A stretch of 24,995 bases of DNA, from IMG/VR virus record IMGVR_UViG_3300045920_000007, positions 1-24,995 of that record; one strand, written 5' to 3'. Below the pieces are notes generated by a model. That model was not told the DNA's origin. It made no database searches and worked only from the letters and a program-made list of their open reading frames with translations. Positions 1 through 20,007 of this stretch are shown piece by piece. This stretch comes from a virus. The first letter of the stretch is position 1. Each line of letters opens with the position of its first letter. Both the position numbers and the translations under genes were made by a program.

Positions 1-2
1 CG

Positions 3-941
3 CTGCAGGTGGCCAGGCTCGAGGTCATGGCTGCTGACGCCAGAGCCGAAGCCGATCGCCTGACGGCTCTCGTTGAGGCCGAACGGGTGACTCATCGGGC
101 AGAATTGGCGCAGCGAGTCGAGGCCGACACGGCCGCCCGCTCGGAAGCCGACGCACGGATCGAGGCGCTGCGGGCAGCCTTAGACGTCGCTAACGAAAAG
201 GAGCGGCAGGCTTCAGCCTTGTATACATCGGCTCTGGCCAATCACGCATCACTCGAAGCGGACGTGGCTCACAAACAGGCTGAGTTCACATCTAGACTGG
301 CCGATCTGGACGCCGAGAAGCGCGAGACCGCCGCCGCCATGGAGACCGTCCGCCAAGGACTGGCGCAGATGGAAGCGCAAAACGAGCAGGATCGGGCCGC
401 CCTCGAAGCGATGAGTGCTAAACAGTTGTCATCGTCCACTGAAGCGAGCACACTCTCCGCCGCGCTGCAGGCCACAGCAACCGAGCTCGAGACCGCGCGA
501 GAGAGCCTGTCTCGGCATGACGCCGATGCGTCCAGCGTCTTGACGGCTCAGCATGCGTTGATTGCCGACGTTATGCGACGCATGGTGGAACGTGAGACCG
601 ATCGGATCCGAAGGGCTCAAGCGTCACCGGAGAAATTGCGTCATGTGATCGAGACCTTCTACGACGGGCACGAGGATTTGATGGAACGGTCCCTGGTGCC
701 TTCGATCCGCGTCTATCTGGCCTGGTGTGGCAGTGGCGAGGACGCAGGGGCTGTCGCGCGGTCGTATGCGCGACGCCATGTCGATGAGTCGTTGCGGCAA
801 TTGCGTCTGGTACTGGACGGGGATGCCGACGCCTTCGCGGTCTCGCTGCCGGCGCTCCTGGCGCGTTGGGAACGAGACCGAGCGGCCACCATCGCGGATG
901 ACATTCTCAAGAAAGGACTCGACCATGCGCGCGGCCACTGA
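3..941 (+). CDS. Probable phage portal protein, C-terminal part (5' end outside window), with long coiled coil
   Basis: The reading frame is open from the first complete codon at position 3, and no ribosome-binding site precedes the GTG at 9, so the gene almost certainly begins upstream of the window. The visible 310 or so residues fall in two parts. Roughly the first 190 are Ala/Glu/Arg-rich heptad-like sequence with very few Pro or Gly, a predicted long coiled coil. The last 110 or so are globular, with MRRMVERETDRIRRAQ followed by a FYDGHEDLMERSLVPSIRVYL stretch (only partly quoted). This tail resembles the C-terminal segment of HK97-type portal proteins as I remember them. Its place directly before the prohead protease and capsid genes is where a portal gene is expected. 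The portal is the dodecameric DNA gate at the capsid vertex. The coiled-coil insertion is unusual. A separate scaffold-like protein is the alternative. The stop overlaps the protease start by 17 nt. Confidence 0.6.
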   Translation: MQVARLEVMAADARAEADRLTALVEAERVTHRAELAQRVEADTAARSEADARIEALRAALDVANEKERQASALYTSALANHASLEADVAHKQAEFTSRLADLDAEKRETAAAMETVRQGLAQMEAQNEQDRAALEAMSAKQLSSSTEASTLSAALQATATELETARESLSRHDADASSVLTAQHALIADVMRRMVERETDRIRRAQASPEKLRHVIETFYDGHEDLMERSLVPSIRVYLAWCGSGEDAGAVARSYARRHVDESLRQLRLVLDGDADAFAVSLPALLARWERDRAATIADDILKKGLDHARGH

Positions 942-1509
942 CTCCTATGAGCGTCGCCGGGCGGCCCGTGACGCGCAACTCGATGCGTTCGATGGGCGGA
1001 TCATCCGAGGGACGCCGATTGTCTTTGAGGCGCTTTCGCTGGATCTCGGCGGGTTTCAGGAGCGCATCCTGCCGAGTGCGGTGGACCGCACCTTGCGAGA
1101 GGGGCTCGACGTGCGGGCACTAGTGGATCACGATACCTCGAAAATCATCGGACGAACCAAAGCCGGGACGCTGTCGCTCCGGAAGGAACGAGACGGACTT
1201 TCCGCCAGAATCGAACCGCCGAATACCTCCGTGGCGAGAGACCTGGTTGAGTCGATTGGCCGCGGCGACATTTCGGGGATGAGTTTTGGCTTTCGCGTAC
1301 TGGATGACGATTGGCACATGGAGGACGGGATCCCGATTCGTGAGATTTTGGACATGGTGATCAGAGAAATCAGCATCGTGTCTTTTCCGGCGTACGAGGA
1401 CACCAATGTCGAAATCGCCAAGCGGTCGCTTGAACTGTTCCGCCAGTCGTCAGGCTGGAAGCCGTCCATCGGGTTTCTGGAGCGGGTTGCGAGAGCCGTC
1501 AAGCGATGA
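925..1509 (+). CDS. HK97-family prohead (head maturation) protease
   Basis: This 194-residue protein fits the caudovirus prohead protease family (Pfam PF04586), whose usual length is about 170-230. It would cleave the N-terminal delta region of the capsid protein inside the prohead. Visible signatures are the VDHD motif with the likely catalytic His at residue 69, the GDISGMSFGF motif around residues 114-123 with the catalytic Ser, and the EISIVSFPAYEDT block, which usually closes the catalytic core. I chose ATG 925 because AAAGGA (about 913-918) precedes it at normal spacing and because the family sequence starts just after it. The frame is open further upstream to 727, but that part only shadows the portal gene. 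The next gene starts inside the stop codon (ATGA). Its position between portal and capsid genes is classical. Confidence 0.93.
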   Translation: MRAATDSYERRRAARDAQLDAFDGRIIRGTPIVFEALSLDLGGFQERILPSAVDRTLREGLDVRALVDHDTSKIIGRTKAGTLSLRKERDGLSARIEPPNTSVARDLVESIGRGDISGMSFGFRVLDDDWHMEDGIPIREILDMVIREISIVSFPAYEDTNVEIAKRSLELFRQSSGWKPSIGFLERVARAVKR

Positions 1510-1703
1510 ACAAGAGAGGCCGCCCTCGTCTTGCGCCGGAGATGTCACAGCTCCCAGCCTGCCGGGTGCCAGCGGCGCTGCACGATGCGGCCATCAACGA
1601 AGCGATTGGACGGGATGTGCCCGTGTGCCAGGTGATCCGAGACGCCCTGATTTTGCACCTACAAAATCGGCTCCAGACGGACAGGCGCGACAATACGCAG
1701 TAG
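1506..1703 (+). CDS. Small protein, possible ribbon-helix-helix DNA-binding type
   Basis: This 65-residue basic protein starts at an ATGA overlap with the protease stop, so it is probably translationally coupled. After an RGRPRL opening, the segment from CRVPAAL through VIRDALILHL looks like a short beta strand followed by two helices, the pattern of CopG/Arc-type ribbon-helix-helix proteins. That would make it a DNA binder or regulator. The similarity is by eye and weak. A small head-associated or scaffolding-like function cannot be ruled out, given that it lies between the protease and the capsid gene. No ribosome-binding site of its own is obvious. About 210 nt without a gene follow it before the capsid start. 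Confidence 0.6.
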   Translation: MNKRGRPRLAPEMSQLPACRVPAALHDAAINEAIGRDVPVCQVIRDALILHLQNRLQTDRRDNTQ

Positions 1704-1912
1704 GTAGAACCACGAAGAGTCGGGCGGTGTGCGTGAGGCGCCCTCCGTGCAGGCCCGATGACAACGTGATGCCGTAGTCCCTGCCGAGGGCCTATCGCAT
1801 CAGCGAACACCCGGATTTGAGACAACCCGGTTGATTCGCCTGGTGTGCGAGGGCCCGCAATCGTCCGGTTCCAGGCCCGTGATCCTCCAGGCGATCGAGA
1901 GGACACACGACG
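1704..1912 (+). promoter_or_regulatory. Non-coding leader upstream of the major capsid gene
   Basis: This 209-nt stretch has no convincing gene, in a region where all neighbouring genes overlap. It contains an inverted pair CGCCTGG (1838-1844) / CCAGGCG (1887-1893), with a 42-nt loop, just before the capsid ribosome-binding site GAGAGGA (1897-1903). I see no clear -35/-10 pair and no U-tract terminator. It may be a structured 5' leader or carry a promoter for capsid expression, which is inference from its length and place. Confidence 0.3.
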
Positions 1913-3253
1913 ATGGAACTGAACGAGATCCGAGACCAGATCAACAAACTCGGGACCGACATGATGGCCCTGATGGCCAAGGCCAAGGGCGAACAGCGCG
2001 AGCTGACGTCGGACGAGGAGCAGTCGTTCGATCGCATGGACAGTGATCGCGAGAAGATGATTGCGACCGAGCGGCGCGGCCGACGTCTGGCGGAATTGGA
2101 AACGCCCTCGGGTCGCCTGTCCGACCCTCCGACGCCGTCTAGAGAGCGTCACGCACCGCGCAAGGATGAGTCGAAGTCGATCAATGTGGTCGAAGGTGTG
2201 AGGTCATGGTTGCTGTCCGTAGCTGGCGAGGAGCTCTCATCTGAGCGTCGGGAGGTGCTGTCCCGCATGGGCGTGCATGCAGGCAGCCGTCAGATGACCT
2301 TCAGGCTGTCGTCGGAGCCGTTGCCTGGACTCCGCATGGCCGATGCCAGTGCCTGGGAACAGCGCGCCCTGTCCACGCTGAACACGAGTTCTCCGGTCGA
2401 TGGGTACTACACCATCGAAAACGAGATGATGCGTCCGTTGGAGGAAGCCCTGCTCGCGTTCGGCGGAGTGCGTCAGAGGGCGACGGTGATTCGGACTGAG
2501 ACCGGCGCGGCGCTGCCGATTCCGACCGACAACGACACCGCGAACAAGGGCGAGATCATCGACGAGAATACTGCCGTCAACGAGAAGGACATCACCTTCG
2601 GGCAGTTGGTCCTCAACTCGTTCAAGTACAGCTCGAAGATGATCCGTGTCTCCGTCGAACTGTTGCAGGATGCCTCGTTCCCGCTGGGCCCCTATCTCGG
2701 TCGAAAGCTCGGCACCAGGATCGGACGCATCCAGAACGACCACTTCACGACAGGAAACGGTAGCACGCAGCCGAACGGCATCGTGACCGCTTCCACGGCA
2801 TCTGGCACGCAGTTGGCCGCGCAGACGCCGACGTATGCGGAGATGGTGAGCATCGAGCATTCGGTTGATCCGGCGTATCGGCAGAGTCCTGGCGTCGGAT
2901 GGATGTTCCACGACACCATGCTGGCGGAGGTCAAGAAGATCGTGGACGCAAGCACGGGCCGCCCGATCTGGCTGCCGAACATGATCGGCGGCGCGCCGGA
3001 CACCATCCTCGGACATCCGTATACCGTCAATCAGTCGATGGCGGTGGCGGCCGGGTCCGGTGCCGGCAAGTCGATCCTGTTCGGGGATCTGTCGAAATAC
3101 ATCGTGCGAGACGTGCGAGAAGTCACGCTCGTGGTGGCTGACCAGCTCTACGCGGCGTATCACCAGGTCGCGTTTCTGGCGTTCGCTCGGGCGGATGGGG
3201 ATCTGCTTGACGCCGGCACGCATCCGGTCAAGCACGCGCTGAACAAGTCATAA
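1913..3253 (+). CDS. Major capsid protein, HK97 fold
   Basis: This 446-residue protein matches the phage capsid family (PF05065). Residues 1 to about 80 are charged and helical (start MELNEIRDQINKLG), as expected for the delta/scaffolding domain that the prohead protease removes. A Pro/Ser/Arg-rich linker follows around residues 65-85. The mature domain holds family-like blocks such as TGNGSTQPNGIV (residues about 280-292), GVGWMFHDTMLAEVKK and the closing ILFGDLSKYIVRDVREV, which is typical of the HK97 capsid P-domain and axial region. The start follows GAGAGGA at 1897-1903. The N-terminal delta domain and the protease two genes upstream agree. A strong hairpin lies right after the stop. Downstream genes are not the usual connectors but a sugar-enzyme cassette. 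Confidence 0.95.
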   Translation: MELNEIRDQINKLGTDMMALMAKAKGEQRELTSDEEQSFDRMDSDREKMIATERRGRRLAELETPSGRLSDPPTPSRERHAPRKDESKSINVVEGVRSWLLSVAGEELSSERREVLSRMGVHAGSRQMTFRLSSEPLPGLRMADASAWEQRALSTLNTSSPVDGYYTIENEMMRPLEEALLAFGGVRQRATVIRTETGAALPIPTDNDTANKGEIIDENTAVNEKDITFGQLVLNSFKYSSKMIRVSVELLQDASFPLGPYLGRKLGTRIGRIQNDHFTTGNGSTQPNGIVTASTASGTQLAAQTPTYAEMVSIEHSVDPAYRQSPGVGWMFHDTMLAEVKKIVDASTGRPIWLPNMIGGAPDTILGHPYTVNQSMAVAAGSGAGKSILFGDLSKYIVRDVREVTLVVADQLYAAYHQVAFLAFARADGDLLDAGTHPVKHALNKS

Positions 3254-3263
3254 GGAACCGCTG

Positions 3264-3308
3264 GCGGAGTGGCCGGCAGGTCTCTGGGAGGACCACCGGC
3301 CGCTCCGC
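3264..3308 (+). terminator. Strong hairpin after the capsid gene (attenuator or mRNA processing/stability element)
   Basis: Arms 3264-3276 (GCGGAGTGGCCGG) and 3296-3308 (CCGGCCGCTCCGC) pair over 13 positions with one G-U wobble. GGTC/GACC (3279-3282 / 3291-3294) can extend the stem inward. It begins 11 nt after the capsid stop codon. No U-tract follows, so full intrinsic termination is unlikely. Partial termination, or protection of the abundant capsid mRNA 3' end, fits better. Confidence 0.6.
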
Positions 3309-3329
3309 ATCATGACCAGGGGGGTGTTC

Positions 3330-3557
3330 ATGATCCGTATCCGCATCACTGAAGCCTGCACCGCCCGTCTCACATTTGCTCCAGGCGATCTGCTCTCGCT
3401 GACTGACGTGGGGCCTGACGTTGAGGCGTTCTTGAAGTCCACCCGCGTGGACGGTAAGCACGTCGCTGTGGTCGTTCGTGGCCGAGACGAGCAGGCCATC
3501 ATGGCGGACGACGAAACGGCCGTCACGGCGAGAACGCGGCGGAGTTCTGCGGCTTAA
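3330..3557 (+). CDS. Small protein of unknown function downstream of capsid
   Basis: This is a 75-residue protein. ATG 3330 is preferred over the in-frame ATG 3312 because AGGGGGG (3318-3324) lies 5 nt before it, a very strong ribosome-binding site, and the product then begins MIRIRIT. The sequence has alternating hydrophobic strands in the first 50 residues, including LTFAPGDLLSLTDV and KHVAVVVRGR, suggesting a small beta-rich fold. It ends in a disordered, Ala/Thr/Arg-rich tail. I do not recognise a family. Small proteins directly after the capsid gene are often head decoration or completion proteins, but nothing in the sequence proves this. It ends at 3557, immediately before the ATG of the next gene at 3558. 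Confidence 0.7.
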   Translation: MIRIRITEACTARLTFAPGDLLSLTDVGPDVEAFLKSTRVDGKHVAVVVRGRDEQAIMADDETAVTARTRRSSAA

Positions 3558-4178
3558 ATGGCTGACGCCGTGCCTCGTCTGTTCCCCGGATCCACGGTGG
3601 TCTGTTTGGGCACTGGCCCGAGTCTCCGCGCGGAGGATGTGTCCTACTGTCGAGGCCGGGCGAAGCTGTTGGCAGTCAAGGACGCCTATCGGCTCGCGCC
3701 TGATGCCGACGTGCTCTATTCGGGCGAGATCAGATGGTGGCGTTACTGGGCGCAGCATGATCCGGATGGTCTCGCGGCCATTCCCTTGCGCTATTCGGTC
3801 GATGGCCAGGCGCACCCGTGGGCGACGATTCTGCAGAATTCCGGGATTGATGGCCTCGAGACCGACCCGTCAGGTCTCAGAACCGGCGAGAACTCCGGGT
3901 ATCAGGCCGTGGGTCTCGCGGTGCATCTCGGCGCCAGCAAGATCGTGTTACTCGGCTACGACTTCATGGCGAACAATGGGAAGCTGCACTTTTTCGGGAA
4001 CCACCCGTATCAGACGGTGCCGACGGGCCAACTGGCTCACGCCTTTCATCGGTTCATGGCGCATTTTGCGACGCTCGTGGAACCATTAAAGCGGATGAAC
4101 ATCGCGATCGTGAACGCGACTCGAGAGACGGCCTTGACGTGTTTCCCGCAGATGTCACTGGCCGAGGCGCTCGCGTGA
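3558..4178 (+). CDS. MptE/DUF115-like protein, possible sialyltransferase-fold sugar enzyme
   Basis: This 206-residue protein opens with a Rossmann-like strand and the motif CLGTGPSL (residues 16-23). That matches the GNGPSL-type loop of the DUF115/MptE-like superfamily and of bacterial sialyltransferase-like enzymes, where it binds the nucleotide donor. Further blocks are LLAVKDAYRLAPDADVLYSG, a WWRYW segment, and NSGYQAVGLAVHLGASKIVLLGYDF (each only partly quoted). They resemble phage proteins that, as I recall, are annotated with this superfamily. Its likely role is sugar transfer, or recognition of a nucleotide-linked substrate, in the cytoplasm. It begins directly after the previous stop and its own stop overlaps the next gene's GTG (GTGA). 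It opens a six-gene cassette of sugar-modifying enzymes, which supports a glycosylation role. Acceptor and donor are unknown. Confidence 0.7.
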   Translation: MADAVPRLFPGSTVVCLGTGPSLRAEDVSYCRGRAKLLAVKDAYRLAPDADVLYSGEIRWWRYWAQHDPDGLAAIPLRYSVDGQAHPWATILQNSGIDGLETDPSGLRTGENSGYQAVGLAVHLGASKIVLLGYDFMANNGKLHFFGNHPYQTVPTGQLAHAFHRFMAHFATLVEPLKRMNIAIVNATRETALTCFPQMSLAEALA

Positions 4179-4927
4179 CGACTCCGCTCCAAGTGTTTAT
4201 CGGCTGGGATGCACGCGAACATCGAGCGTGGAACGTCGCGCGGATGAGCATGAAGTGCCATGCCTCTGTCGATGTGGACACGCGACGGCTGGCGCTGGCC
4301 CCACTCCAGACACAGGGACTCTATCGGAGACCGACCGAGGACCGAGGCGACGGCAAGCTCTGGGACGTGATTTCTGAGGCCCCGATGTCCACTGGCCACG
4401 CGATCGCCCGGTTTCTCGTGCCGCATTTATGCGGGTATTTCGGATGGGCGCTGTTCACCGACGGTGACGTGCTGTTCCGCGACGACGTCGCGAAGCTGTT
4501 CGCGCTGGCCGATGACCGTTTCGCCGTGATGATCGTGCAACACGACTACACGCCAGCCGAGACCGTCAAAAAGGGCGGCCATCTGCAGACGTCGTATCCG
4601 CGCAAGAACTGGTCGTCGGTGATGCTGTTCAACTGTGGGCATCAGGCTAACCGCGCGTTAGACGTAAACCTCATCAATAGCGTCCCAGGACGAGACCTGC
4701 ACAGGTTTTGCTGGCTCGATGATGACGTGATTGGCGGATTGCCGCCCAGATGGAATGTCCTGGTTGGCCATTCGCCATATGACGAGATGGCGGCGCTCGT
4801 GCATTTTACAGAAGGCGTGCCAGATGTGCCTGGGTACGAGGGCGTGCCGTATGCAGATGAGTGGTTCGGTCATGCCAAGGCGGCCGGCTACCGGCTGTCC
4901 ATGCCGTGCGTCCAGGTGCCGGCGTGA
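4175..4927 (+). CDS. GT-A fold glycosyltransferase with DGD motif
   Basis: Read from GTG 4175 this is a 250-residue protein. The GTG overlaps the preceding TGA and the family-like N-terminus (PLQVFIGWDAREHRAWNVA) follows at once. The longer in-frame start at 4139 would shadow the upstream gene. It looks like a cytoplasmic GT-A glycosyltransferase related to GT8-like enzymes. A first strand VFIGWD is followed by the metal/nucleotide-sugar motif TDGDVLF, with DGD at residues 96-98. Next comes an acceptor-side block KNWSSVMLFNC (about 145-154), then LDDDVIGGLPPRWNVL (181-196) and HFTEG (210-214), all familiar from GT8-type enzymes. No membrane segment is seen, so soluble transfer onto a protein or small-molecule acceptor is plausible. 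Donor sugar cannot be read from the sequence. Confidence 0.82.
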   Translation: MTTPLQVFIGWDAREHRAWNVARMSMKCHASVDVDTRRLALAPLQTQGLYRRPTEDRGDGKLWDVISEAPMSTGHAIARFLVPHLCGYFGWALFTDGDVLFRDDVAKLFALADDRFAVMIVQHDYTPAETVKKGGHLQTSYPRKNWSSVMLFNCGHQANRALDVNLINSVPGRDLHRFCWLDDDVIGGLPPRWNVLVGHSPYDEMAALVHFTEGVPDVPGYEGVPYADEWFGHAKAAGYRLSMPCVQVPA

Positions 4928-5751
4928 CCGGATGGCTGATTGCGATGGTCGTTGAATTCTTGCTGTTCGATCCGGTCTCGTCTCGCGGCTCCACCATGTT
5001 TGAGGCGCTCACAGACACGGCGCAAGGCCACACGTGCGTCACGACGCGGGCCTATAGCGGGACGTCCGATCTTCTGATGCTGTGGGGGCCTGGGGCTCCG
5101 AATCGTTTCCACGCCATGCGCGCGCACCTGGACAGAGGCAAGCATCTCGTCGCATGGGACTTGGCGTATTGGCAGCGTGATAACAAGGTCCGCTGCTCGA
5201 TTGACGGCGCGCATCCCAGCGCGTGGGTCATGCGGCGTGAGTGGCCACAGGATCGGCTACTGCACGATGGAGTCTCTGTCTACGACAGATGGCAGCCAGA
5301 CGGGCCGATCCTGGTGGCCGGCTTAGGCCAGAAGGCGCGCGTCCAGTATGGGGCTTCAATCGTGGACGCCTGGGAGGCCTCGATGATTGCCGCGTGCCGA
5401 GCCCGCTACAGCAACCGAGTCCTGTATCGGAGCAAGAACGGCGGGGCCGTTCCCGCTGGTGTGGATCGAGCTCAGTCAGGTCAGATTGACGATGCGCTGT
5501 CTGGCGCGTCGCTCGTGGTGACGTGGCATAGCAACGTCGCCGTGGATGCGATGAGGCTCGGTATTCCCGTGATCTGTCGCGACGGCGCCGCGGCGGCCGT
5601 GTATCCGTCAGAGCTTCCATCGACTGGCCGTCCTGCGCCGCTCGACCATGGCCTGCGGGCTAAATTTCTCGCGAATCTGGCGTGGTTTCAATGGGCACCT
5701 GACGAAGCCGAGACGTGCTGGGGTTTTCTCAACGGACTGTTGACGAGCTGA
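4924..5751 (+). CDS. Putative GT-B-like glycosyltransferase
   Basis: This protein is 275 residues from GTG 4924, which overlaps the previous stop (GTGA, the same junction type as its neighbours). ATG 4945 is an alternative start. The C-terminal half carries SLVVTWHSNVAVDAMRLGIP followed by VICRDGAAAAVYP (residues about 196-228). This is the Ser/Asn-x-x-x-Asp/Glu-ala and GxPVI pattern seen at the nucleotide-sugar end of GT-B enzymes and of capsule-export/CDP-glycerol-transferase-like proteins. The N-terminal half has LLFDPVSSRGSTMF and HLVAWDLAYWQRDNK, which could be the acceptor domain. I infer a soluble sugar-handling enzyme, from this motif and from the cassette it belongs to. Exact family membership is uncertain. 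Confidence 0.62.
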   Translation: MTGWLIAMVVEFLLFDPVSSRGSTMFEALTDTAQGHTCVTTRAYSGTSDLLMLWGPGAPNRFHAMRAHLDRGKHLVAWDLAYWQRDNKVRCSIDGAHPSAWVMRREWPQDRLLHDGVSVYDRWQPDGPILVAGLGQKARVQYGASIVDAWEASMIAACRARYSNRVLYRSKNGGAVPAGVDRAQSGQIDDALSGASLVVTWHSNVAVDAMRLGIPVICRDGAAAAVYPSELPSTGRPAPLDHGLRAKFLANLAWFQWAPDEAETCWGFLNGLLTS

Positions 5752-6497
5752 TGCGCGTGGTTTGCCCGTATCGCCCCTATCCGCCAGAGACGCTGCCGCA
5801 TGCGGAGGGGATCGGCCCGTTCGATTGGCTGGATGCGATCCGCATGATGAGTGCCAGTGTGGCGGTCACGAATCGCTGTAAGACGCACGTTATCACAGAC
5901 GCGAAGACGGCCTTGCCGATGCCGGCGCTCAGGTTCAAAACGACCGAGCAGGCGTTGATGTTGTGGGTTCTGGATGTCTCTCGTGCCTACCTGGAATCGA
6001 GGCACTTCAACACAGACACGGTCATGGTCTGTCCGGATCTGTTGGTCTACCGCGATCTGCGCGGCAGGTTCAACGGTGATTTGGGCCTCGTGATTCGTCA
6101 GGAAGAGAAACATCTGGCGTCTGGGCGCCCGCTGATCAATGGCGTGCAGTGGTGGGCGGTTCGGGCGAAGGATCGGCTGGTCGCTGCCTTCAGAGACGCC
6201 TTGCGTATCGCGAAGACCTTACCAGACGAGATCATCGCGTGGGGGGCCGACACGGAGCCATTGCGGATGATGGCCGAACCGCTCCAGCCTGGCGTCCACG
6301 TCAGGGGCGGGCTCTCCGTCAATATGATCCCGTGCGAGGGCGTGCTCGAGGCGCTGGCCTCTCGGACGATTGACAGGTTGGAGTCAGGGGAACAAATAGG
6401 ATGGCCTCAAGCGGCCCTGATTGACTTCAGAAGCACGCGGAAGCGATACATGCGGGCGTTCTTTGAAGCGACATACGGGCAAGCGGTGCTGGCGTGA
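5751..6497 (+). CDS. Putative GT-A-like glycosyltransferase, degenerate metal motif
   Basis: This 248-residue protein starts at ATG 5751, which shares one base with the preceding stop (TGATG). The in-frame ATG 5715 would overlap the upstream gene by 37 nt. The N-terminus MRVVCPYRPYPPE and the block KTHVITDAKT, then LWVLDVSRAYLES and TVMVCPDLLVYRDL (about residues 90-103), follow the order of a GT-A nucleotide-diphospho-sugar transferase: donor strand, helix, then the DxD position. Here the DxD site reads CPD, so the metal-binding motif looks altered. Later, WWAVRAKDRLVAAFRDAL and an IIAWGADTEPLRMM block resemble the acceptor half. I call it a glycosyltransferase-like protein because of this order and its position inside the cassette. 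It could be a catalytically weak paralogue. Confidence 0.55.
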   Translation: MRVVCPYRPYPPETLPHAEGIGPFDWLDAIRMMSASVAVTNRCKTHVITDAKTALPMPALRFKTTEQALMLWVLDVSRAYLESRHFNTDTVMVCPDLLVYRDLRGRFNGDLGLVIRQEEKHLASGRPLINGVQWWAVRAKDRLVAAFRDALRIAKTLPDEIIAWGADTEPLRMMAEPLQPGVHVRGGLSVNMIPCEGVLEALASRTIDRLESGEQIGWPQAALIDFRSTRKRYMRAFFEATYGQAVLA

Positions 6498-7141
6498 AGT
6501 GGGCGCGAGGCTGGGCGTTCCCAGACGCTGATGAGTTCATGGTTAACGAGCTCGGGTATGACGGGACGTATCAGATGGGGCATTTGGAAGCGGCACTCTC
6601 GTATGTGACCGACTGGGGATGTGCGATTGACGGCGGCGCGCACATCGGCACGTGGTCGAGGGCGATGAGTGCCAAGTTCGGATCGGTCGTCTCGTTCGAG
6701 CCGAGCCCTGATACGTACGAATGTCTGGTGCAGAACATGTCTGCCTTCGGGTGTGCCAATGTGGCCTGCCATCACGCCGCGCTGGGAGGTGTCGCCGGGT
6801 CTGTCTCCGTGATGTGGGATGCCGTGAATGAGGCCCGCGCGAACACCGGGGCTCGATACGTTACGAAGATCGGGAACATCCCGATGGTGACGGTCGATAG
6901 CTTCAATCTGGATCACATAGGGTTTCTCAAGCTGGACGTGGAAGGCTCAGAGCCGGACGCCTTGCGGGGGGCTGTGACCACGATCCACAGGTGCAGGCCG
7001 ATCGTGCTGTTCGAGGACAAAGGGCTCTGGAAGCGCCATTACGGCCTCCCGAGAGATACCGTGCAGCGATTCCTGACCGGCATCGGCTATCAGCGTCTCG
7101 AGCGTGTGTCGATGGATGAAATCTGGGGGCCGCCATCGTGA
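6494..7141 (+). CDS. FkbM-family SAM-dependent methyltransferase
   Basis: This is a 215-residue class I methyltransferase of the FkbM type, starting at GTG 6494 inside the previous stop (GTGA). SAM-binding motif I is CAIDGGAHIGTWS (residues 43-55). The acidic loop after the second strand is VVSFEPSPDTYECL (about 65-78). The FkbM-typical FLKLDVEGSEPDALRG lies near residue 140. FkbM enzymes usually O-methylate sugars or polyketides, and are often found beside glycosyltransferases. Set between glycosyltransferase-like genes, the simplest reading is that it methylates a sugar added by its neighbours. Methylation of sugar caps could vary the virion glycan or protect it. No membrane segment is seen. 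Confidence 0.88.
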   Translation: MKWARGWAFPDADEFMVNELGYDGTYQMGHLEAALSYVTDWGCAIDGGAHIGTWSRAMSAKFGSVVSFEPSPDTYECLVQNMSAFGCANVACHHAALGGVAGSVSVMWDAVNEARANTGARYVTKIGNIPMVTVDSFNLDHIGFLKLDVEGSEPDALRGAVTTIHRCRPIVLFEDKGLWKRHYGLPRDTVQRFLTGIGYQRLERVSMDEIWGPPS

Positions 7142-7986
7142 ACGTCTTGATCTGCGGACGCGGCAAGGGTTCCTGGGAGATGCGAGGCGTCCAGGTCGGA
7201 GACGCGATCGGCGCACGGGTGGTCTCGGTGCCGTCTTATGGCGATCTGAAGTGGGCGGACATCGTGGTACTCATCAAGCGAGCTGGCATGGAGCACGCGA
7301 AGCGTGTGCACAGGTCCGGCAAGCCAATCGTCTGGGATGCGCTCGATTATTGGTCTCAGCCCGCGCACAACCGTTTGACGAGAGAAGAAGCGAGGCATGA
7401 GTTCGCCGGCCAGATCCGTGCGATCTCTCCGCACTTGGTGATCGGCGCGACGAAGGCGCAGGCCGATGACGCGAAGGGCGAATACATTCCCCATCACTCA
7501 TGGTCAGGCCTGTCGCCGGCTCCATGCCGAGACGAGATGCGCGTGGTCGGCTATGAGGGCAACCCGATTTACCTCGGGGCCTGGGCCACTGCGCTCGAAG
7601 ACATCTGCCTGTCTCGCGGCTGGTCGTTCGTGGTCAATCCGCCGTCCCTGAGTGACTGCGACCTGCTCGTGTCGCTCCGCGATGGTGTTTGGGATGGCTG
7701 GATGTGCCGGGAATGGAAGAGCGGGGTGAAGGTCGTGAACGCGATCGCTGCGGGGCGCCCGATTATTGCTCAGCCGAGTGCCGCGATGCGAGACATTCAA
7801 CCTCCAGGGTCGGTCGTGGAGAACGTCGTGGAGTTACGACAGGCCCTTGAGCGATGGGCGGCTCGCGACTGGCGGACCACCTGCGTGGAAGTGTGCCGAC
7901 AAAAGGCCGTGAGATACACGCTTAATGCCGTCGCGCGGCATTACAAGCTCATGCTGTCGCGTGTGGCGGAGTCTGTAGGTGTTTGA
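7138..7986 (+). CDS. Putative GT-B-fold glycosyltransferase (GT4-like)
   Basis: This protein is 282 residues from GTG 7138, again overlapping the previous stop. It begins MNVLICGRGKGSWEMRGVQV, an N-terminal Rossmann strand plus glycine-rich loop as in GT-B enzymes. SGKPIVWDALDYW (about 60-72), a VIGATKAQADD linker segment and WDGWMCREWKSGVKVVNAIA with AGRPIIAQPSAAMRDI follow. The last block resembles the C-terminal donor-binding helix and loop of GT4-type enzymes (K-x-x-N-A-x-A-x-G-x-P). It closes the sugar cassette, and its 3' end overlaps the connector gene's start by 8 nt, so the cassette is read as part of the late head operon. Confidence 0.65.
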   Translation: MNVLICGRGKGSWEMRGVQVGDAIGARVVSVPSYGDLKWADIVVLIKRAGMEHAKRVHRSGKPIVWDALDYWSQPAHNRLTREEARHEFAGQIRAISPHLVIGATKAQADDAKGEYIPHHSWSGLSPAPCRDEMRVVGYEGNPIYLGAWATALEDICLSRGWSFVVNPPSLSDCDLLVSLRDGVWDGWMCREWKSGVKVVNAIAAGRPIIAQPSAAMRDIQPPGSVVENVVELRQALERWAARDWRTTCVEVCRQKAVRYTLNAVARHYKLMLSRVAESVGV

Positions 7987-8620
7987 TCTGATTGATACGG
8001 CGGAATCGCTCGTGACTGGTCCGGTCAGGGAGCCGTTGGACTTGGAAGAAGTTAAAAAGGCCCTCCGGATCACTTCGGAGACTGAGCATACGCTCCTGGT
8101 CACGTGGATGGCAGCCGCGCGACAGTATTTCGAGGTCGAGACCGGGCGCCAAGTCATGCTCGCCACCTGGGAGTACCACTTGGACGAGTTCCCCGTGTAC
8201 CCAGCCATCGAAGTGCCTCGACCACCGCTCGTGAGCGTCGAAAGCATCTCGTATCTCGATGAGGCAGGCGTTACGCAAACGATGGATCCGGCGGATTACA
8301 CGGTGCATACCGCGGCTGGCCCGCTGTGTCCTCGTGGGCGGATCTCAATTCCTCATGCGAGCGTCTGGCCGACTTCTGGGGAGCACCAGAAGGCCGTCAC
8401 GATTCGGTATCAGGCGGGGTACGGGGAGGTGTACGACAGCGTGCCTGAACTCATTAAGGGGACTCTGCTCCTGATTGTGGGCGTCTATTACCAGTTTCGG
8501 GCGAACGTCTACGCGCACCGCGGGGGGGGTCTGGAAACGCTCCCGATGGGCGTGGAGCCAATCGTGCGGGCGTTCCGTGAAACCGCCATTCAGACGCTGG
8601 CCCCGAGGCGGGCATGCTGA
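7979..8620 (+). CDS. Head-tail connector, HK97 gp6-like / phiE125 gp8-like
   Basis: This 213-residue protein starts at GTG 7979, preceded by GGAG at 7968-7971. It has the layout of the gp6-like head-tail connector family (PF05135; TIGR02215-type). An N-terminal helical part has EPLDLEEVKKALRI and LLVTWMAAARQYFEVETG. A beta-rich middle has WEYHLDEFP, PRPPLVSVESISYLDEAG and VTIRYQAGYG. A C-terminal helix set begins VPELIKGTLLLIVGVYY. The protein would form the ring under the portal that joins head and tail. Its last codons overlap the next gene's ATG by 7 nt. Normally this gene comes soon after the capsid gene, whereas here 4.7 kb separate them. Confidence 0.88.
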   Translation: MFDLIDTAESLVTGPVREPLDLEEVKKALRITSETEHTLLVTWMAAARQYFEVETGRQVMLATWEYHLDEFPVYPAIEVPRPPLVSVESISYLDEAGVTQTMDPADYTVHTAAGPLCPRGRISIPHASVWPTSGEHQKAVTIRYQAGYGEVYDSVPELIKGTLLLIVGVYYQFRANVYAHRGGGLETLPMGVEPIVRAFRETAIQTLAPRRAC

Positions 8621-8955: not shown

Positions 8956-9394
8956 GTTCAAGGTCTCTGGATTCAAGGAACTTGAGCGCAACCTTCGGAA
9001 GCTCCCGCAGGAGATCGCCGGGAAGGTGTTGCGTGAATCGCTCAGAAAGGCCGCGCAGCCAGTCGTGGAGCAGGCCAAGACGGCGGCGCCACGCTCAACG
9101 GACCCAGGATCGCAAGGGCATTTGGCTGACAGCATTGCACTGCGGTCGTTCAAAACCGAGGGTCTGGATGACCTCGAAGTCAATCTGTGGTTGGGGCCAA
9201 GTCCGAAGCACTTTTACGGCATGTTCCATGAGTTCGGCACGCGCAAGATGCCGGCACGGCCGTTTCTCCGACCGGCCTGGGATGCTCAGGGTAACGAGGT
9301 ACTGGATGCGTTTGGGCGACTGCTCGGTGCCGCGATTGAGAAGGCAGCCAGGAAACTGCACAAGGCAGCCAGGAAACTGCACAAGTCGAAATGA
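8948..9394 (+). CDS. HK97 gp10-like tail completion protein
   Basis: This 148-residue protein starts at ATG 8948, overlapping the previous stop. The longer frame from 8903 only shadows that gene. The opening IEFKVSGFKELERNLRKLP, the helix GKVLRESLRKAAQPVVEQAK followed by APRSTDPGSQGHLADSI, and FYGMFHEFGTRKMPARPFLR (residues about 91-110) are the defining order of the HK97 gp10 / phage tail-component family (PF04883). Its role is in completing the head-proximal end of the tail. The C-terminus is extended by an exact duplication of seven codons giving KAARKLH twice (DNA repeat 9341-9361 / 9362-9382). The next gene starts in its stop codon. Confidence 0.9.
   Translation: MIEFKVSGFKELERNLRKLPQEIAGKVLRESLRKAAQPVVEQAKTAAPRSTDPGSQGHLADSIALRSFKTEGLDDLEVNLWLGPSPKHFYGMFHEFGTRKMPARPFLRPAWDAQGNEVLDAFGRLLGAAIEKAARKLHKAARKLHKSK
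9341..9382 (+). repeat. Perfect 21-bp tandem duplication at the gp10 3' end
   Basis: The unit AAGGCAGCCAGGAAACTGCA plus C occupies 9341-9361 and again 9362-9382 with no differences. It is in frame and repeats KAARKLH at the protein C-terminus. The identity of both copies suggests a recent duplication. Confidence 0.95.
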
Positions 9395-9819
9395 ACGTGC
9401 TGTCCGGACTGCGAACGTATCTCTTGGGGGATGCCGCGATCGTGGCTCTCGTGGCGGCCAGGGTGTATCCGGTCACGGCTCCACAGGGGGAGACACGGGC
9501 CAGGCTGGTGTTAACGCCGATCACGGGGTTTCGGCAGCCGATTTTGCACGGACCTGCGTCTGTCGGGCGTCCACGGTATCAGGTGGACGCCTGGGATGTG
9601 ACGTATGAGGGGGCGCAGTCGCTGGGCAATCTCGTTCGCCAGAGACTCGAAGGGCAGAACGCGACATGGACGGATACGAGTAGCCCGCCGGTGTCCATCG
9701 GTGTGCAAATCGAGTTCGTGGATGATCGCGTGCTGTTCGAGACAGACGTGAGCGGAGGGCACTATCGGCACTCGGCCGATTACTACATCTGGCACGGGAC
9801 GAACGGAGGGACGGTCTGA
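9391..9819 (+). CDS. Tail terminator / tail completion protein (DUF3168-like)
   Basis: This 142-residue protein starts at an ATGA overlap. The start LSGLRTYLLGDAAIVALVAARVYP, the strand block RARLVLTPITGFRQPILHGP, the YQVDAWDVTYEGAQSLGNLV segment and the late IEFVDDRVLFETD with YRHSADYYIWHG (partly quoted) match the DUF3168 family (PF11367), related to lambda gpU and HK97 tail-terminator proteins. It caps the growing tail tube and joins it to the head. It lies exactly between the gp10-like gene and the tube gene, as expected. An intergenic space of 200 nt with a terminator-like hairpin follows. Confidence 0.85.
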   Translation: MNVLSGLRTYLLGDAAIVALVAARVYPVTAPQGETRARLVLTPITGFRQPILHGPASVGRPRYQVDAWDVTYEGAQSLGNLVRQRLEGQNATWTDTSSPPVSIGVQIEFVDDRVLFETDVSGGHYRHSADYYIWHGTNGGTV

Positions 9820-9914
9820 CCCGAACGATCTAAATCAGTCTTTGACGCTGCGCTAGGGCGTGCAACCCGAACAGGCCGTACCCCTCCGGCTCGCGCAGTG
9901 ACAAGGGGGACACG

Positions 9915-9970
9915 GAAAAAGGGGCCGTGTTGACGCTGCTACAGAGCAGTGCCAATGCGGCCCCTTTTTC
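9915..9970 (+). terminator. Intrinsic terminator-like hairpin, symmetrical, before the tail tube gene
   Basis: Arms GAAAAAGGGGCCG (9915-9927) and CGGCCCCTTTTTC (9958-9970) pair perfectly over 13 bp. A second stem CTGCT/AGCAG (9936-9940 / 9945-9949) sits in the loop. The GC-rich stem ends in a five-T run on the + strand, and the A run gives the same on the - strand, so it could stop transcription in both directions. It lies 50 nt before the tube gene. I see no clear promoter between it and that gene, so it may be leaky, antiterminated or an RNA-processing site. The rest of 9820-9914 shows nothing recognisable. Confidence 0.8.
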
Positions 9971-10019
9971 TGTTGTTCCAGATGCTTAACCGAGGGCATG
10001 TGACAGGAGACGACGAACG

Positions 10020-10436
10020 ATGTCCGACGCCATTTCAACCCAGGGAACCAAGTTCTACCGTGCGCCGGCGAGCTCGCCGGCTTCGTTCTCGCTGGTGCCG
10101 GAGTGCCGGGTGATTCCTGGTCCGGTCCAGACGTCCGAAGAAATCGAGGTGACGCATCTTGACAGCACGGGTGGACGACGTGAGTACATCCAGTCGTTCA
10201 AGGACGCGGATGATCTCAACGTCGAAAGCAACTACATCACGGGCGATGCCGTCCAGGCGCTGATCCGCGGCGATTACTCGAGCGGCGCGATCAACACCTG
10301 GAAAGTCGAGAACCCTGATGCGACCACGCAGACCTTTGAGGGATTCGTCAAGACGCTAGGGGAGACCTCGGCGGTTGGCGAAGCGAAGCCGTTCAACTTC
10401 ACCGTCAGGATCACAGGAGCCGTCACGTTCTCGTAA
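10020..10436 (+). CDS. Major tail tube protein
   Basis: This 138-residue protein with AGGAGA at 10005-10010 before the ATG has a good ribosome-binding site, as fits a highly expressed gene. The layout is that of lambda gpV-like and TP901-like tube proteins. An N-terminal strand TQGTKFYRAP is followed by FSLVPECRVIPGPVQTSEEI and the typical EVTHLDSTGGRREYIQSFKD segment (residues about 43-62). NVESNYITGDAVQALIRGD and the final FNFTVRITGAVTF come next. Stacked rings of this protein form the tail shaft. The tail chaperone and the tape-measure gene follow it, which is the standard order. Confidence 0.9.
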   Translation: MSDAISTQGTKFYRAPASSPASFSLVPECRVIPGPVQTSEEIEVTHLDSTGGRREYIQSFKDADDLNVESNYITGDAVQALIRGDYSSGAINTWKVENPDATTQTFEGFVKTLGETSAVGEAKPFNFTVRITGAVTFS

Positions 10437-10468
10437 GCAGCGTGGGCGGTGACTAGAGGGGGTGACTC

Positions 10469-10825
10469 GTGAGCAATAAGCGTCATGTTGTCGAATTGTC
10501 CGACAGCACAGGGCAGACGTATACCCTGCGGTTCGGGACCAATGCCATATGTGCGGTGCAGGACGAATTGAATCTCTCGCTGGGGGAGATTCTGAAGCAA
10601 TTCGATCACGACAAGCTCGACATGCGGACCATCCGTACGATGGTGAAGTGTGCCGTGGTGGAACCGAAAGGCGTCACGGCGGAGCAGGTCGGAGACTTCA
10701 TTGACGATGTCGGATTTGAAGCAGTCACGAAGGTGATCGGGACCGTCTTCGGGAGCGGCGAAGCGGGCCCTCCTGGCGGGCCGAGTGGCGGCGATTCCAA
10801 GTCGAATGCGCCTCACTCGGCATAA
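10469..10825 (+). CDS. Tail assembly chaperone, short (G-type) product
   Basis: This 118-residue protein starts at GTG 10469 after AGAGGGGG (about 10454-10461). The N-terminal 90 residues (HVVELSDSTGQTYTLRFGTN, then VQDELNLSLGEIL, and VGFEAVTKVIGTVF) form a small globular domain. A Gly/Pro/Ser-rich tail ends at TAA 10823-10825. The position between tube and tape-measure genes is that of lambda gpG and its relatives, which coat the tape measure during tail assembly. The tail carries a slippery site (10765-10771) and a stem that lead a fraction of ribosomes into the -1 frame to make a longer G-T product of 210 residues, join(10469..10771,10771..11100). The family itself is weakly conserved, so the call rests mainly on place and on the frameshift signal. 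Confidence 0.8.
   Translation: MSNKRHVVELSDSTGQTYTLRFGTNAICAVQDELNLSLGEILKQFDHDKLDMRTIRTMVKCAVVEPKGVTAEQVGDFIDDVGFEAVTKVIGTVFGSGEAGPPGGPSGGDSKSNAPHSA
10765..10821 (+). promoter_or_regulatory. -1 programmed ribosomal frameshift signal
   Basis: The heptamer G GGC CCT (10765-10771) fits X XXY YYZ in the frame of the upstream gene and would re-pair as GGG CCC. Eight nt later GCCGAGTG (10780-10787) pairs perfectly with CACTCGGC (10814-10821), with ATTC/GAAT able to pair in the loop. The -1 frame is open from 10705 to 11100 and codes for a chaperone-T-like domain without its own start. This is the standard arrangement of tail G/GT genes. Confidence 0.82.
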
Positions 10826-11100
10826 CCACCGATCGATTTGATGACCTCTCGATTCAGGATCTGCACATTGAGCGGGAAGCCGCCCGGAAGCGGTGGGAGG
10901 ACTGGTATGCCCTCGGACTGTTCGTGGCGTGGCATGTCGCCGCGATCGGGCGCGCGAAGCGTCTGCCGAGCCTGAGTTCGCTGATCAAACGGCTGCGGCA
11001 GGCTGGCGACGACCAGACGCCAGAGCCGCAGGACTGGCAATCGGTGCGTGACTGGATGATGGCGAGGGAAGCCGTGCAGAGCAAGAAGAAAAAGCGCTGA
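10771..11100 (+). CDS. Tail assembly chaperone, T extension made by -1 frameshift
   Basis: These 109 residues are read in the -1 frame after slippage of the preceding gene at 10769-10771. The -1 frame has no stop between TGA 10702-10704 and TGA 11098-11100. It also has no ATG until the pair near the C-terminus, so the product cannot start on its own in the usual way. The sequence opens SWRAEWRRFQVECASLGITT and contains LSIQDLHIEREAARKRWEDW, YALGLFVAWHVAAI and a basic end with KKKKR. The helical, charged pattern with Leu/Trp spacing is like the T domain of lambda GT and related proteins, which binds the tape measure and recruits tube protein. Together with the G part the fusion is 210 residues. 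The tape-measure gene starts 3 nt after the stop. Confidence 0.82.
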   Translation, partial: SWRAEWRRFQVECASLGITTDRFDDLSIQDLHIEREAARKRWEDWYALGLFVAWHVAAIGRAKRLPSLSSLIKRLRQAGDDQTPEPQDWQSVRDWMMAREAVQSKKKKR

Positions 11101-11103
11101 CAC

Positions 11104-16088: not shown

Positions 16089-16104
16089 GGACTAGACCGA
16101 CTCC

Positions 16105-19983: not shown

Positions 19984-20007
19984 ACCATGGCGCGGAAAGG
20001 CGATGAG

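What the first reader, a model, noticed from the sequence alone, without database searches (positions are those of the whole stretch)
3558..7986. Six-gene sugar-modification cassette set inside the head operon: candidate virion glycosylation system
Seen: between the capsid gene (ends 3253) and the connector gene (starts 7979) lie six tightly overlapping genes that look like a DUF115/MptE-like protein, a GT-A enzyme with DGD motif (residues 96-98), two GT-B-like proteins, a second GT-A-like protein with an altered CPD motif, and an FkbM methyltransferase. Known: phage-encoded glycosyltransferases are reported to decorate virion proteins in some actinobacterial phages, and FkbM enzymes often methylate sugars. 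Inference: a two- to four-step chain that builds a methyl-capped glycan on the capsid or another virion protein. It is not an isolated transferred gene, because stop/start overlaps link all members to each other and to the connector. Several donors and a methyl cap would be more elaborate than the usual single transferase.
Basis: partly seen in the sequence, partly recalled or inferred. Interest (0 to 1): 0.72.

Follow-up and report, generated by a model that had tools for sequence, protein, structure and literature searches.

The report
Phage virion sugar-coating gene cassette
A virus of bacteria carries six linked sugar-handling genes between its capsid gene and a head-tail joining gene, and the same set in the same order recurs in many other uncultivated phages, usually right behind a gene for a collagen-like protein, so it probably builds a methylated sugar chain on the virus particle.

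Summary
Six intact genes (3558-7986), joined by 1-8 base overlaps, lie between an HK97-type capsid gene and a gp6-like connector gene. P1 is DUF115/MptE-like ("sialyltransferase"-like). P2 is GT8-like. P3 has a confident GT-B model closest to the Kdo transferases KpsC and WbbB but lacks their catalytic motifs. P4 has a confident GT-A model. P5 is an FkbM methyltransferase. P6 is weakly GT-B-like.

The cassette is not private to this phage. Of 33 dereplicated IMG/VR contigs found with P3 or P6, 16 carry P1-P2-P3-P4-P5-P6 in that order; 6 more are truncated but consistent. In 23 of 26 contigs with at least 1 kb upstream, the nearest recognised gene before P1 encodes a collagen-like (Gly-X-Y) protein, not found in the window phage. 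P1-P3-P3-P2-methyltransferase sets follow a tail gene in two cultured Caulobacter phages examined.

The likeliest function is glycosylation of a virion surface protein with a short O-methylated glycan. No glycan or acceptor is shown. The collagen-like protein is an attractive acceptor in relatives, but it is missing here and its repeats are poor in Ser/Thr. I rate it a new variant of a known kind (phage virion glycosylation), not seen described in the searches made.

The parts
3558..4178 (+). P1: DUF115/MptE-like, 'alpha-2,3-sialyltransferase'-like protein, 206 aa; candidate enzyme for the first sugar
   Evidence: Pfam MptE-like E=3.4e-6, below its cut-off; PHROG 4603 E=1.1e-37; 21 of 21 aligned members match MptE-like at E<=0.1; invariant G20-P21-S22
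4175..4927 (+). P2: GT8-like GT-A glycosyltransferase with invariant DxD (D96, D98), 250 aa
   Evidence: phrog_28018 (unknown function) 7.4e-50; 15 of 25 members match Glyco_transf_8 at E<=0.1, best 4.9e-9, window protein only 0.031; alignment
4924..5751 (+). P3: GT-B glycosyltransferase-like protein with KpsC/WbbB-like fold but without conserved QXXXD and (K/R)XHP motifs, 275 aa
   Evidence: AF2 pLDDT 93.7, pTM 0.90; VIA Z 13.2, rmsd 4.2, 234 aligned to KpsC; motifs not conserved
5751..6497 (+). P4: GT-A glycosyltransferase-like protein of GT8-like shape, 248 aa; two copies in 7 of the 16 relatives with the full order
   Evidence: AF2 pLDDT 93.4, pTM 0.90; VIA Z 14.4 (rmsd 3.5, 189 aligned) to glycogenin-1; no match among PDB sequences at E<=5; copies
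6494..7141 (+). P5: FkbM-type methyltransferase, 215 aa; candidate sugar O-methyl cap
   Evidence: Pfam Methyltransf_21 1.1e-16 and TIGR01444 1.5e-22, both over cut-off; PDB 2py6 1.6e-9 with the alignment
7138..7986 (+). P6: putative GT-B glycosyltransferase, 282 aa
   Evidence: 6 of 15 members match Glyco_trans_1_4 (best 0.0038), 2 match Glyco_trans_1_2 (best 0.022); window protein 0.11; no fold predicted
1913..3253 (+). HK97-type major capsid protein gene, upstream border and candidate acceptor
   Evidence: PF05065 3.5e-57, TIGR01554 4.4e-79
3312..3557 (+). 81-aa ORF of unknown function between capsid gene and P1
   Evidence: no Pfam match at E<=1; only weak PHROG matches of unknown function, best 0.021
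7979..8620 (+). gp6-like head-tail connector gene, downstream border
   Evidence: TIGR02215 3.9e-26, Pfam Phage_connect_1 7.8e-6
937..1509 (+). Prohead protease (S78) gene of the head operon, for context; start chosen by inspection
   Evidence: PF04586 1.4e-43 on the longer ORF 727-1509

Best explanation
The six genes are one cassette that glycosylates a surface protein of the virion inside the host cell during assembly. P1, a minimal Maf/sialyltransferase-like enzyme, probably attaches the first sugar to the acceptor protein. P2 and P4 (GT-A) and P3 and P6 (GT-B) then extend the chain using host nucleotide sugars, and P5 O-methylates one of the sugars. In the window phage the acceptor is most likely the capsid or another head protein; in most relatives it may be the collagen-like protein encoded just upstream. 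Shown here: the gene set, folds or families of most members, conservation of content and order, and location among head genes. Inferred: late co-expression with the head genes, that the product is a glycan on a virion protein, the order of steps, the donors and the acceptor.
For: Overlapping genes between capsid and connector. GT or methyltransferase assignment of P2-P5, weaker for P1 and P6. The same order in 16 of 33 dereplicated contigs and 6 more truncated but consistent ones; in 15 of 23 contigs with at least 700 bases after P6 the next recognised gene is the connector, and the other 8 belong to two alternative architectures. In 23 of 26 contigs the nearest recognised gene before P1 encodes a collagen-like protein, within 44 bases of the P1 match in 21 of the 23. 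P1 relatives also lie between capsid and connector in phage D3, and P1-P3-P3-P2-methyltransferase sets follow a large tail gene in CcrColossus and CcrBL9. No PF00303 (thymidylate synthase/dCMP hydroxymethylase) gene in 10 of 10 related records, with the search ringing in 9 of 14 control genomes. No clear membrane span in any of the six (highest 19-residue Kyte-Doolittle mean 1.61, P3 N-terminus). Maf enzymes carrying pfam01973 put nonulosonic acids or Kdo on Ser/Thr of flagellin (PMC11339370, start of abstract and passages). Covalent glycans on capsid proteins of mycobacteriophages Che8 and Rita are reported (passage of PMC11256854).
Against: No virion, glycan or enzyme activity has been measured. 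Phage glycosyltransferases can also act on the host surface. The window phage lacks the collagen-like gene that accompanies the cassette in most relatives, so either the acceptor differs or the collagen link is incidental. P1 and P6 were not folded. P3 lacks the catalytic motifs of its nearest structural relatives, so its activity is uncertain. 17 of the 33 contigs do not show the full order: 6 are cut by contig ends, 11 differ.
Confidence: 0.68

Rival explanations
1. The cassette modifies the host cell surface (LPS or capsule) late in infection, for superinfection exclusion or to avoid progeny re-binding to debris, and sits in the structural operon only for late expression.
For: Phage glycosyltransferases are given this role for pelagimyophages (PMC7029224 passages). 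P3 has the fold of KpsC/WbbB, enzymes of capsule and O-antigen synthesis.
Against: No clear membrane span in P1-P6, hence no flippase-like member. The place before the connector is kept in phages with different head modules. No relative of P3 or P6 was confirmed in one genome for each of 84,980 bacterial and archaeal species with motif-limited scans, whereas lysogenic-conversion genes are often found in prophages (established knowledge).
Confidence: 0.15
2. In the relatives the cassette is a dedicated glycosylation system for a collagen-like virion protein, and the window phage has lost that protein and kept the enzymes for another acceptor or as a remnant. This is a special case of the best explanation and does not exclude it.
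For: 23 of 26 contigs have a collagen-like gene as the nearest recognised gene before P1. Collagen-like capsid decoration is known in SPP1 gp12 (PMC6316719 passages), and mimivirus L230 glucosylates collagen-like viral protein (PMC9614988 passages).
Against: Ser+Thr make only 4.5% of X/Y positions in the 626 Gly-X-Y triplets counted, so a Thr-rich BclA-like stalk is not seen; Lys is 10.9%, but a lysyl hydroxylase was not looked for. P1-led sets also occur without a collagen-like gene next to them: L014, L097, L009, L010 and CcrColossus by sequence, D3 and CcrBL9 by their annotation.
Confidence: 0.3
3. The cassette glycosylates phage DNA.
For: Phage glycosyltransferases acting on hydroxymethylated bases exist (established knowledge).
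Against: No PF00303 gene in 10 of 10 records, some of them fragments; the genes lie in the head operon.
Confidence: 0.03

Closest known systems
Mycobacteriophage Che8/Rita capsid glycosylation (Freeman et al. 2023; seen only as cited in PMC11256854)
   Same: Phage glycans covalently attached to a virion protein, with phage-encoded glycosyltransferases in the group
   Different: In the related phage Maravista the genes are near the 3' end of the genome; here four or five glycosyltransferase-like genes and a methyltransferase gene sit among head genes, in a phage whose capsid and terminase match phages of Gram-negative bacteria best
Caulobacter phages CcrColossus (gp126-gp131) and CcrBL9, sugar-gene clusters
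   Same: P1-P3-P3-P2-methyltransferase order directly after a large tail gene
   Different: No P4, P5 or P6 profile match in the region read; CcrBL9 has a P5 relative elsewhere in its genome. The cluster follows a tail gene, not a capsid or collagen-like gene; genomes of 280-322 kb
Pseudomonas phage D3 orf7 and coliphage P1 pmgO/pmgP
   Same: P1 relatives; D3 orf7 lies between capsid and connector
   Different: No P2-P6 profile match in the stretches read; functions unknown
Maf flagellin glycosyltransferases (pfam01973)
   Same: P1 carries the same Pfam family at low score; Maf enzymes attach nonulosonic acids or Kdo to Ser/Thr (PMC11339370)
   Different: P1 is a single short protein (206 aa), not the three-domain Maf
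Retaining beta-Kdo transferases KpsC (GT107), WbbB (GT99), KrkA (GT140)
   Same: P3 model matches KpsC and WbbB over most of its length (Z 13.2-11.7); KrkA scores 9.7, tied with unrelated GT-B proteins
   Different: The Asp of QXXXD is present in only 4 of 18 P3 sequences, though its Gln column is invariant, and (K/R)XHP is replaced by R-x-K
Mimivirus L230 and SPP1 gp12 (viral collagen-like proteins)
   Same: Viral collagen-like proteins in or on virions; L230 glycosylates one
   Different: L230 acts through lysine hydroxylation; gp12 is not described as glycosylated in the passages read; the window phage has no collagen-like gene

Membership tests
Phage virion glycosylation systems | Several glycosyltransferase genes in the phage genome | tested here: met
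   P3 and P4 by fold, P2 through relatives; P1, P6 by weaker family matches
Phage virion glycosylation systems | Glycan demonstrated on a virion protein | not testable with these tools
   needs mass spectrometry of virions
FkbM methyltransferases (P5) | Profile match above curated cut-off | tested here: met
   PF05050 61.9 bits against 22.7; TIGR01444 80.6 against 37.7
GT99/GT107/GT140 retaining Kdo transferases (P3) | KpsC/WbbB-like GT-B fold | tested here: met
   Z 13.2, rmsd 4.2, 234 aligned to KpsC; unrelated GT-B rows up to 9.4; KrkA 9.7 is tied with those
GT99/GT107/GT140 retaining Kdo transferases (P3) | Conserved QXXXD nucleophile motif (PMC12887879 passages) | tested here: not met
   best column pair holds Q and D in 4 of 18 aligned sequences; its Gln is invariant, the Asp is not
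GT99/GT107/GT140 retaining Kdo transferases (P3) | (K/R)XHP CMP-binding motif | tested here: not met
   an R-x-K motif is found in the C-terminal part in 18 of 18 sequences instead; the invariant HP (97-98) is in the N-terminal part. The equivalence of R-x-K rests on inspection
DUF115/MptE-like (P1) | Match to PF01973 | tested here: inconclusive
   window 27.4 bits, below the 34.6 cut-off; 21 of 21 members match at E<=0.1, best 2.4e-7
Maf flagellin glycosyltransferases (P1) | Three-domain architecture around pfam01973 (PMC11339370) | tested here: not met
   206 aa in all, too short for three such domains; judged by length
GT8 (P2) | GT8 profile and metal-binding DxD | tested here: inconclusive
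   15 of 25 members match PF01501 at E<=0.1, window protein 0.031, below cut-off; DxD Asp residues invariant
GT8-like GT-A fold (P4) | GT-A fold | tested here: met
   Z 14.4 glycogenin-1, 13.7 UGGT, 13.6 LH3, 13.3 PBCV-1 capsid GT and LgtC
DNA hypermodification systems | dUMP/dCMP hydroxymethylase (PF00303) | tested here: not met
   0 of 10 records, controls ring in 9 of 14
BclA-like glycosylated collagen | Collagen-like protein in the same genome | tested here: not met
   window phage: no PF01391 match at E<=1 in the 48.6-kb contig; met in most relatives
BclA-like glycosylated collagen | Thr-rich Gly-X-Y triplets (recalled) | tested here: not met
   relatives' proteins: Ser+Thr 4.5% of X/Y positions in 626 triplets counted
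gtrABC-type seroconversion clusters | Membrane-spanning flippase and transferase (recalled) | tested here: not met
   no 19-residue window above 1.61 in P1-P6

The most novel reading that the evidence does not exclude
A widespread and undescribed class of uncultivated phages carries a portable glycosylation operon that, with a collagen-like head protein, makes a bacteriophage glycoprotein fibre with a variable, methylated and sometimes deacetylated glycan. It would be a phage counterpart of BclA or of mimivirus collagen glycosylation, with P3 founding a new glycosyltransferase family. The window phage would show the operon joined to a different head module without its collagen-like partner.
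Probability: 0.27. Interest if true: 0.82.

Novelty: new variant of a known kind. Interest (0 to 1): 0.62.

Why it matters
As far as I recall, virion glycosylation in phages has been demonstrated in few cases. Here a six-gene cassette recurs in 16 other dereplicated contigs at a fixed place among head genes, with variable extra genes (second P4, methyltransferases, a PIG-L-type deacetylase), as one would expect if the glycan is under pressure to vary (inference). It suggests a testable function for P1-family genes in laboratory phages (D3 orf7, coliphage P1 pmgO/pmgP, CcrColossus gp126), which are annotated only as hypothetical, putative morphogenetic or sialyltransferase-like. It also links phage collagen-like proteins to glycosylation genes.

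Tried and rejected
Collagen gene in the window phage: rejected. The only Gly-X-Y runs of five or more triplets in its contig are glycine-rich low-complexity runs and one five-triplet run in another reading frame than the called ORF; there is no PF01391 match and no match to the globular segment of the relatives' collagen-like proteins.

P3 as a bona fide Kdo transferase: rejected on motifs though the fold fits.

'Unknown in isolated phages': tblastn with P3, P4 and P6 gave no match in 50,697 phage records at E<=0.01, but a P3 profile finds two genes each in CcrColossus and CcrBL9, so for P3 the absence was one of sensitivity. P4 and P6 profiles found nothing in the eight GenBank loci examined (D3, MW202512, Mosig, DLP_6, MW202462, CcrColossus, P1, CcrBL9), which are stretches, not whole genomes.

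Bacterial prophages: scans of one genome for each of 84,980 species with alignments A3 and A6 matched 30 stretches each, none confirmed. Each scan rests on two short motifs, so this is weak.

PDB sequence searches gave nothing usable for P1 (an alpha-2,3/8-sialyltransferase only at 0.94), P3, P4 and P6, and a weak WbbM match for P2 (0.042). P1 and P6 were not folded because the cap is two. Genes of unknown kind in relatives (L036:6117-6974, L035:5284-6015, L049:5539-6828, L035:8415-9077) and D3 orf12 had no Pfam match at E<=0.05.

Literature: ten searches, judged by listed titles and abstract starts. None listed a paper on this cassette. 'collagen-like' with 'bacteriophage', 'glycosyltransferase' and 'FkbM' gave 0 papers.

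Full report
OBSERVATION. The window is one 24,995-base virus record. Between the HK97-type capsid gene (1913-3253) and the gp6-like connector gene (7979-8620) lie an 81-aa ORF (3312-3557) and six longer ORFs. With starts chosen at the stop/start overlaps read from the sequence, P1 is 3558-4178, P2 4175-4927, P3 4924-5751, P4 5751-6497, P5 6494-7141 and P6 7138-7986. Neighbours overlap by 4, 4, 1, 4 and 4 bases, and P6 overlaps the connector gene by 8. All six are open over their whole length. GC content is like the flanks.

WHAT THE PROTEINS ARE. P1: Pfam MptE-like E=3.4e-6, below the curated cut-off; PHROG 4603 (alpha-2;3-sialyltransferase) E=1.1e-37; 21 of 21 aligned members match MptE-like at E<=0.1. 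P2: phrog_28018, function unknown, E=7.4e-50; 15 of 25 members match GT8, best 4.9e-9, but the window's own match is only 0.031; D96 and D98 invariant. P3: model with mean pLDDT 93.7; Foldseek best hits are KrkA, KpsC and WbbB (E about 1e-6); VIA Z 13.2, rmsd 4.2 over 234 residues to KpsC and up to 12.8 to WbbB, with unrelated GT-B proteins up to 9.4 and KrkA, at 9.7, tied with those; viral predicted structures named 'capsule polysaccharide biosynthesis protein' also match. P4: model with mean pLDDT 93.4; Z 14.4 to glycogenin-1, 13.7 to UGGT, 13.6 to the collagen lysyl glycosyltransferase LH3, 13.3 to the PBCV-1 capsid glycosyltransferase and LgtC. Most of these are tied, and they show a GT-A fold, not an acceptor. 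P5: FkbM over cut-offs and related to PDB 2py6. P6: 6 of 15 members match Glyco_trans_1_4, best 0.0038; not folded.

P3 IS NOT A CANONICAL KDO TRANSFERASE. KpsC, WbbB and KrkA share a QXXXD nucleophile motif and an HP motif in the C-terminal domain (PMC12887879, passages). In the 18-sequence P3 alignment no column pair carries QXXXD in more than 4 of 18 sequences. The Gln of that best pair is invariant (Q141), but the Asp is not. The C-terminal part has R-x-K in 18 of 18 instead of (K/R)XHP. The fold is shared; family membership is not met.

THE CASSETTE RECURS. Scans of IMG/VR with P3 and P6, then with their alignments, gave 35 contigs other than those of the window phage, 33 after merging two near-identical pairs. 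P3 or P6 is present in these by construction; the rest is not. Genes were recognised with profiles built from these loci; the portal and protease-capsid labels rest on Pfam and PHROG matches of one member each. After collapsing repeats, 16 of 33 have exactly P1-P2-P3-P4-P5-P6. Six are truncated by contig ends but consistent. One has P1-P3-P4 without P2. Nine show two other architectures: five with P6 followed by a P1 copy, four of these also with P2, and four with P1-P3-P6-P3-P2. One has only P1 and P6. Seven of the 16 have two P4 copies. Extra genes in relatives include Methyltransf_24 and PIG-L proteins above cut-off, and weaker Methyltransf_23 and TOD1_MUCI70 matches below cut-off. Where at least 700 bases follow P6 (23 contigs), the next recognised gene is the connector in 15 and another cassette gene in 8.

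A COLLAGEN-LIKE NEIGHBOUR. A gene was called collagen-like if it had at least 12 Gly-X-Y triplets in runs of six or more, with a composition filter. In 26 contigs with at least 1 kb before the first detected P1, the nearest recognised gene is such a protein in 23 (17 to 63 triplets), within 44 bases of the P1 match in 21 of these, 226 and 472 bases in the other two. Pfam confirms the collagen family in three of three proteins tested directly and in 8 of 10 records searched by family; the two without a match are the window phage's contig and G012, whose contig starts inside the cassette. The order in relatives is protease-capsid fusion, portal, collagen-like, P1 ... P6, connector. The three exceptions are two contigs where the detected P1 follows P6, and one (L097) where P1 follows genes that look by inspection like connector and head-closure genes. 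The window phage has a different head block (portal, protease, capsid) and no collagen-like gene in its 48.6-kb contig, but shares the cassette, connector and several following genes with, for example, L022. So the cassette works, or persists, without that neighbour. The collagen stretches counted have only 4.5% Ser+Thr at X/Y positions (626 triplets, from the part of 19 loci where the ORF called just before P1 could be read), which does not favour a BclA-type acceptor stalk.

CULTURED RELATIVES. A P1 relative lies between capsid and connector in Pseudomonas phage D3, and coliphage P1 pmgO and pmgP match the P1 profile (4.5e-35 and 3e-9). In all, 75 of 50,697 phage records match P1, 18 match P2 and 31 match P5; P3, P4 and P6 as single sequences match none. 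In CcrColossus and CcrBL9, the two Caulobacter phages read, the order is tail gene, P1, P3-like, P3-like, P2, methyltransferase, further gene. P1-led sugar gene sets therefore sit behind different virion genes: collagen-like protein, capsid, or tail protein.

MECHANISM. The best reading is glycosylation of a virion surface protein: P1 first, P2/P4/P3/P6 extending, P5 methylating. Support for P1 as the enzyme that touches protein is by analogy: Maf enzymes with pfam01973 attach nonulosonic acids or Kdo to Ser/Thr of flagellin, and their central domain resembles the sialyltransferase Cst-II (PMC11339370, abstract start and passages). Against host-surface modification speak the lack of membrane spans and the constant tie to head genes. 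Against DNA modification speaks the absence of PF00303 genes in 10 of 10 records. The best terminase match (44.6%, Burkholderia phage BgVeeders33) and the best capsid matches (46%, Vibrio phages, over 63% of the protein) point to a Gram-negative host, where CMP-Kdo is made (established knowledge), although both searches also list many Gram-positive phages at lower rank. The host itself is unknown.

PRECEDENT AND NOVELTY. Capsid glycans of mycobacteriophages Che8 and Rita are reported (cited in PMC11256854; the original is not held). SPP1 gp12 is a collagen-like capsid accessory protein (PMC6316719, passages). Mimivirus L230 glucosylates hydroxylysine of viral collagen-like protein (PMC9614988, passages). 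None of the ten literature searches listed a description of this cassette, judged by titles and abstract starts; the library is open-access only. I rate it a new variant of a known kind.

Noticed in passing
window 1-941 (ends of contig G001): The ORF before the protease looks like a coiled-coil C-terminus of the portal protein. A segment of about 49 aa is repeated at the start of contig G001 and recurs at its end, where the portal ORF runs off; the contig has an 87-base exact terminal direct repeat there, so the genome may be nearly complete.
   Followed up: partly
L054:669-1541 and L054:122-682 (G001 40669-41541, 40122-40682, outside the window): A second DUF115/MptE-like gene (E=4.3e-15) beside a methyltransferase gene in the same phage.
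   Followed up: no
L109:3593-4255 and 4153-4779 (coliphage P1 pmgO, pmgP): Two adjacent 'putative morphogenetic function' genes of phage P1 match the P1-family profile (4.5e-35 and 3e-9); they may be sugar-transfer genes.
   Followed up: partly
L026:4583-5608, L022:4124-4885 and others: Collagen-like proteins with a Gly-X-Y stalk and a globular segment of about 85 aa between two stretches of it; two of three tested match CBM_5_12 weakly, below cut-off.
   Followed up: partly
window 3001-8000: AT skew is negative (-0.03 to -0.09) across the cassette but positive at 1-3000 and 9001-16000, with GC content unchanged; it is negative again at 16001-20000, so it is not unique to the cassette.
   Followed up: no
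G001 about 25100-26600 (at and past the window's end): Low-complexity repeats encoding Gly/Glu-rich runs in forward frames and Ala/Ser-rich ones in reverse, where the window's record stops.
   Followed up: no
L006:2987-4683: Two adjacent P3-family genes upstream of a P2 gene and of a portal/capsid block, in a contig outside the main set.
   Followed up: no
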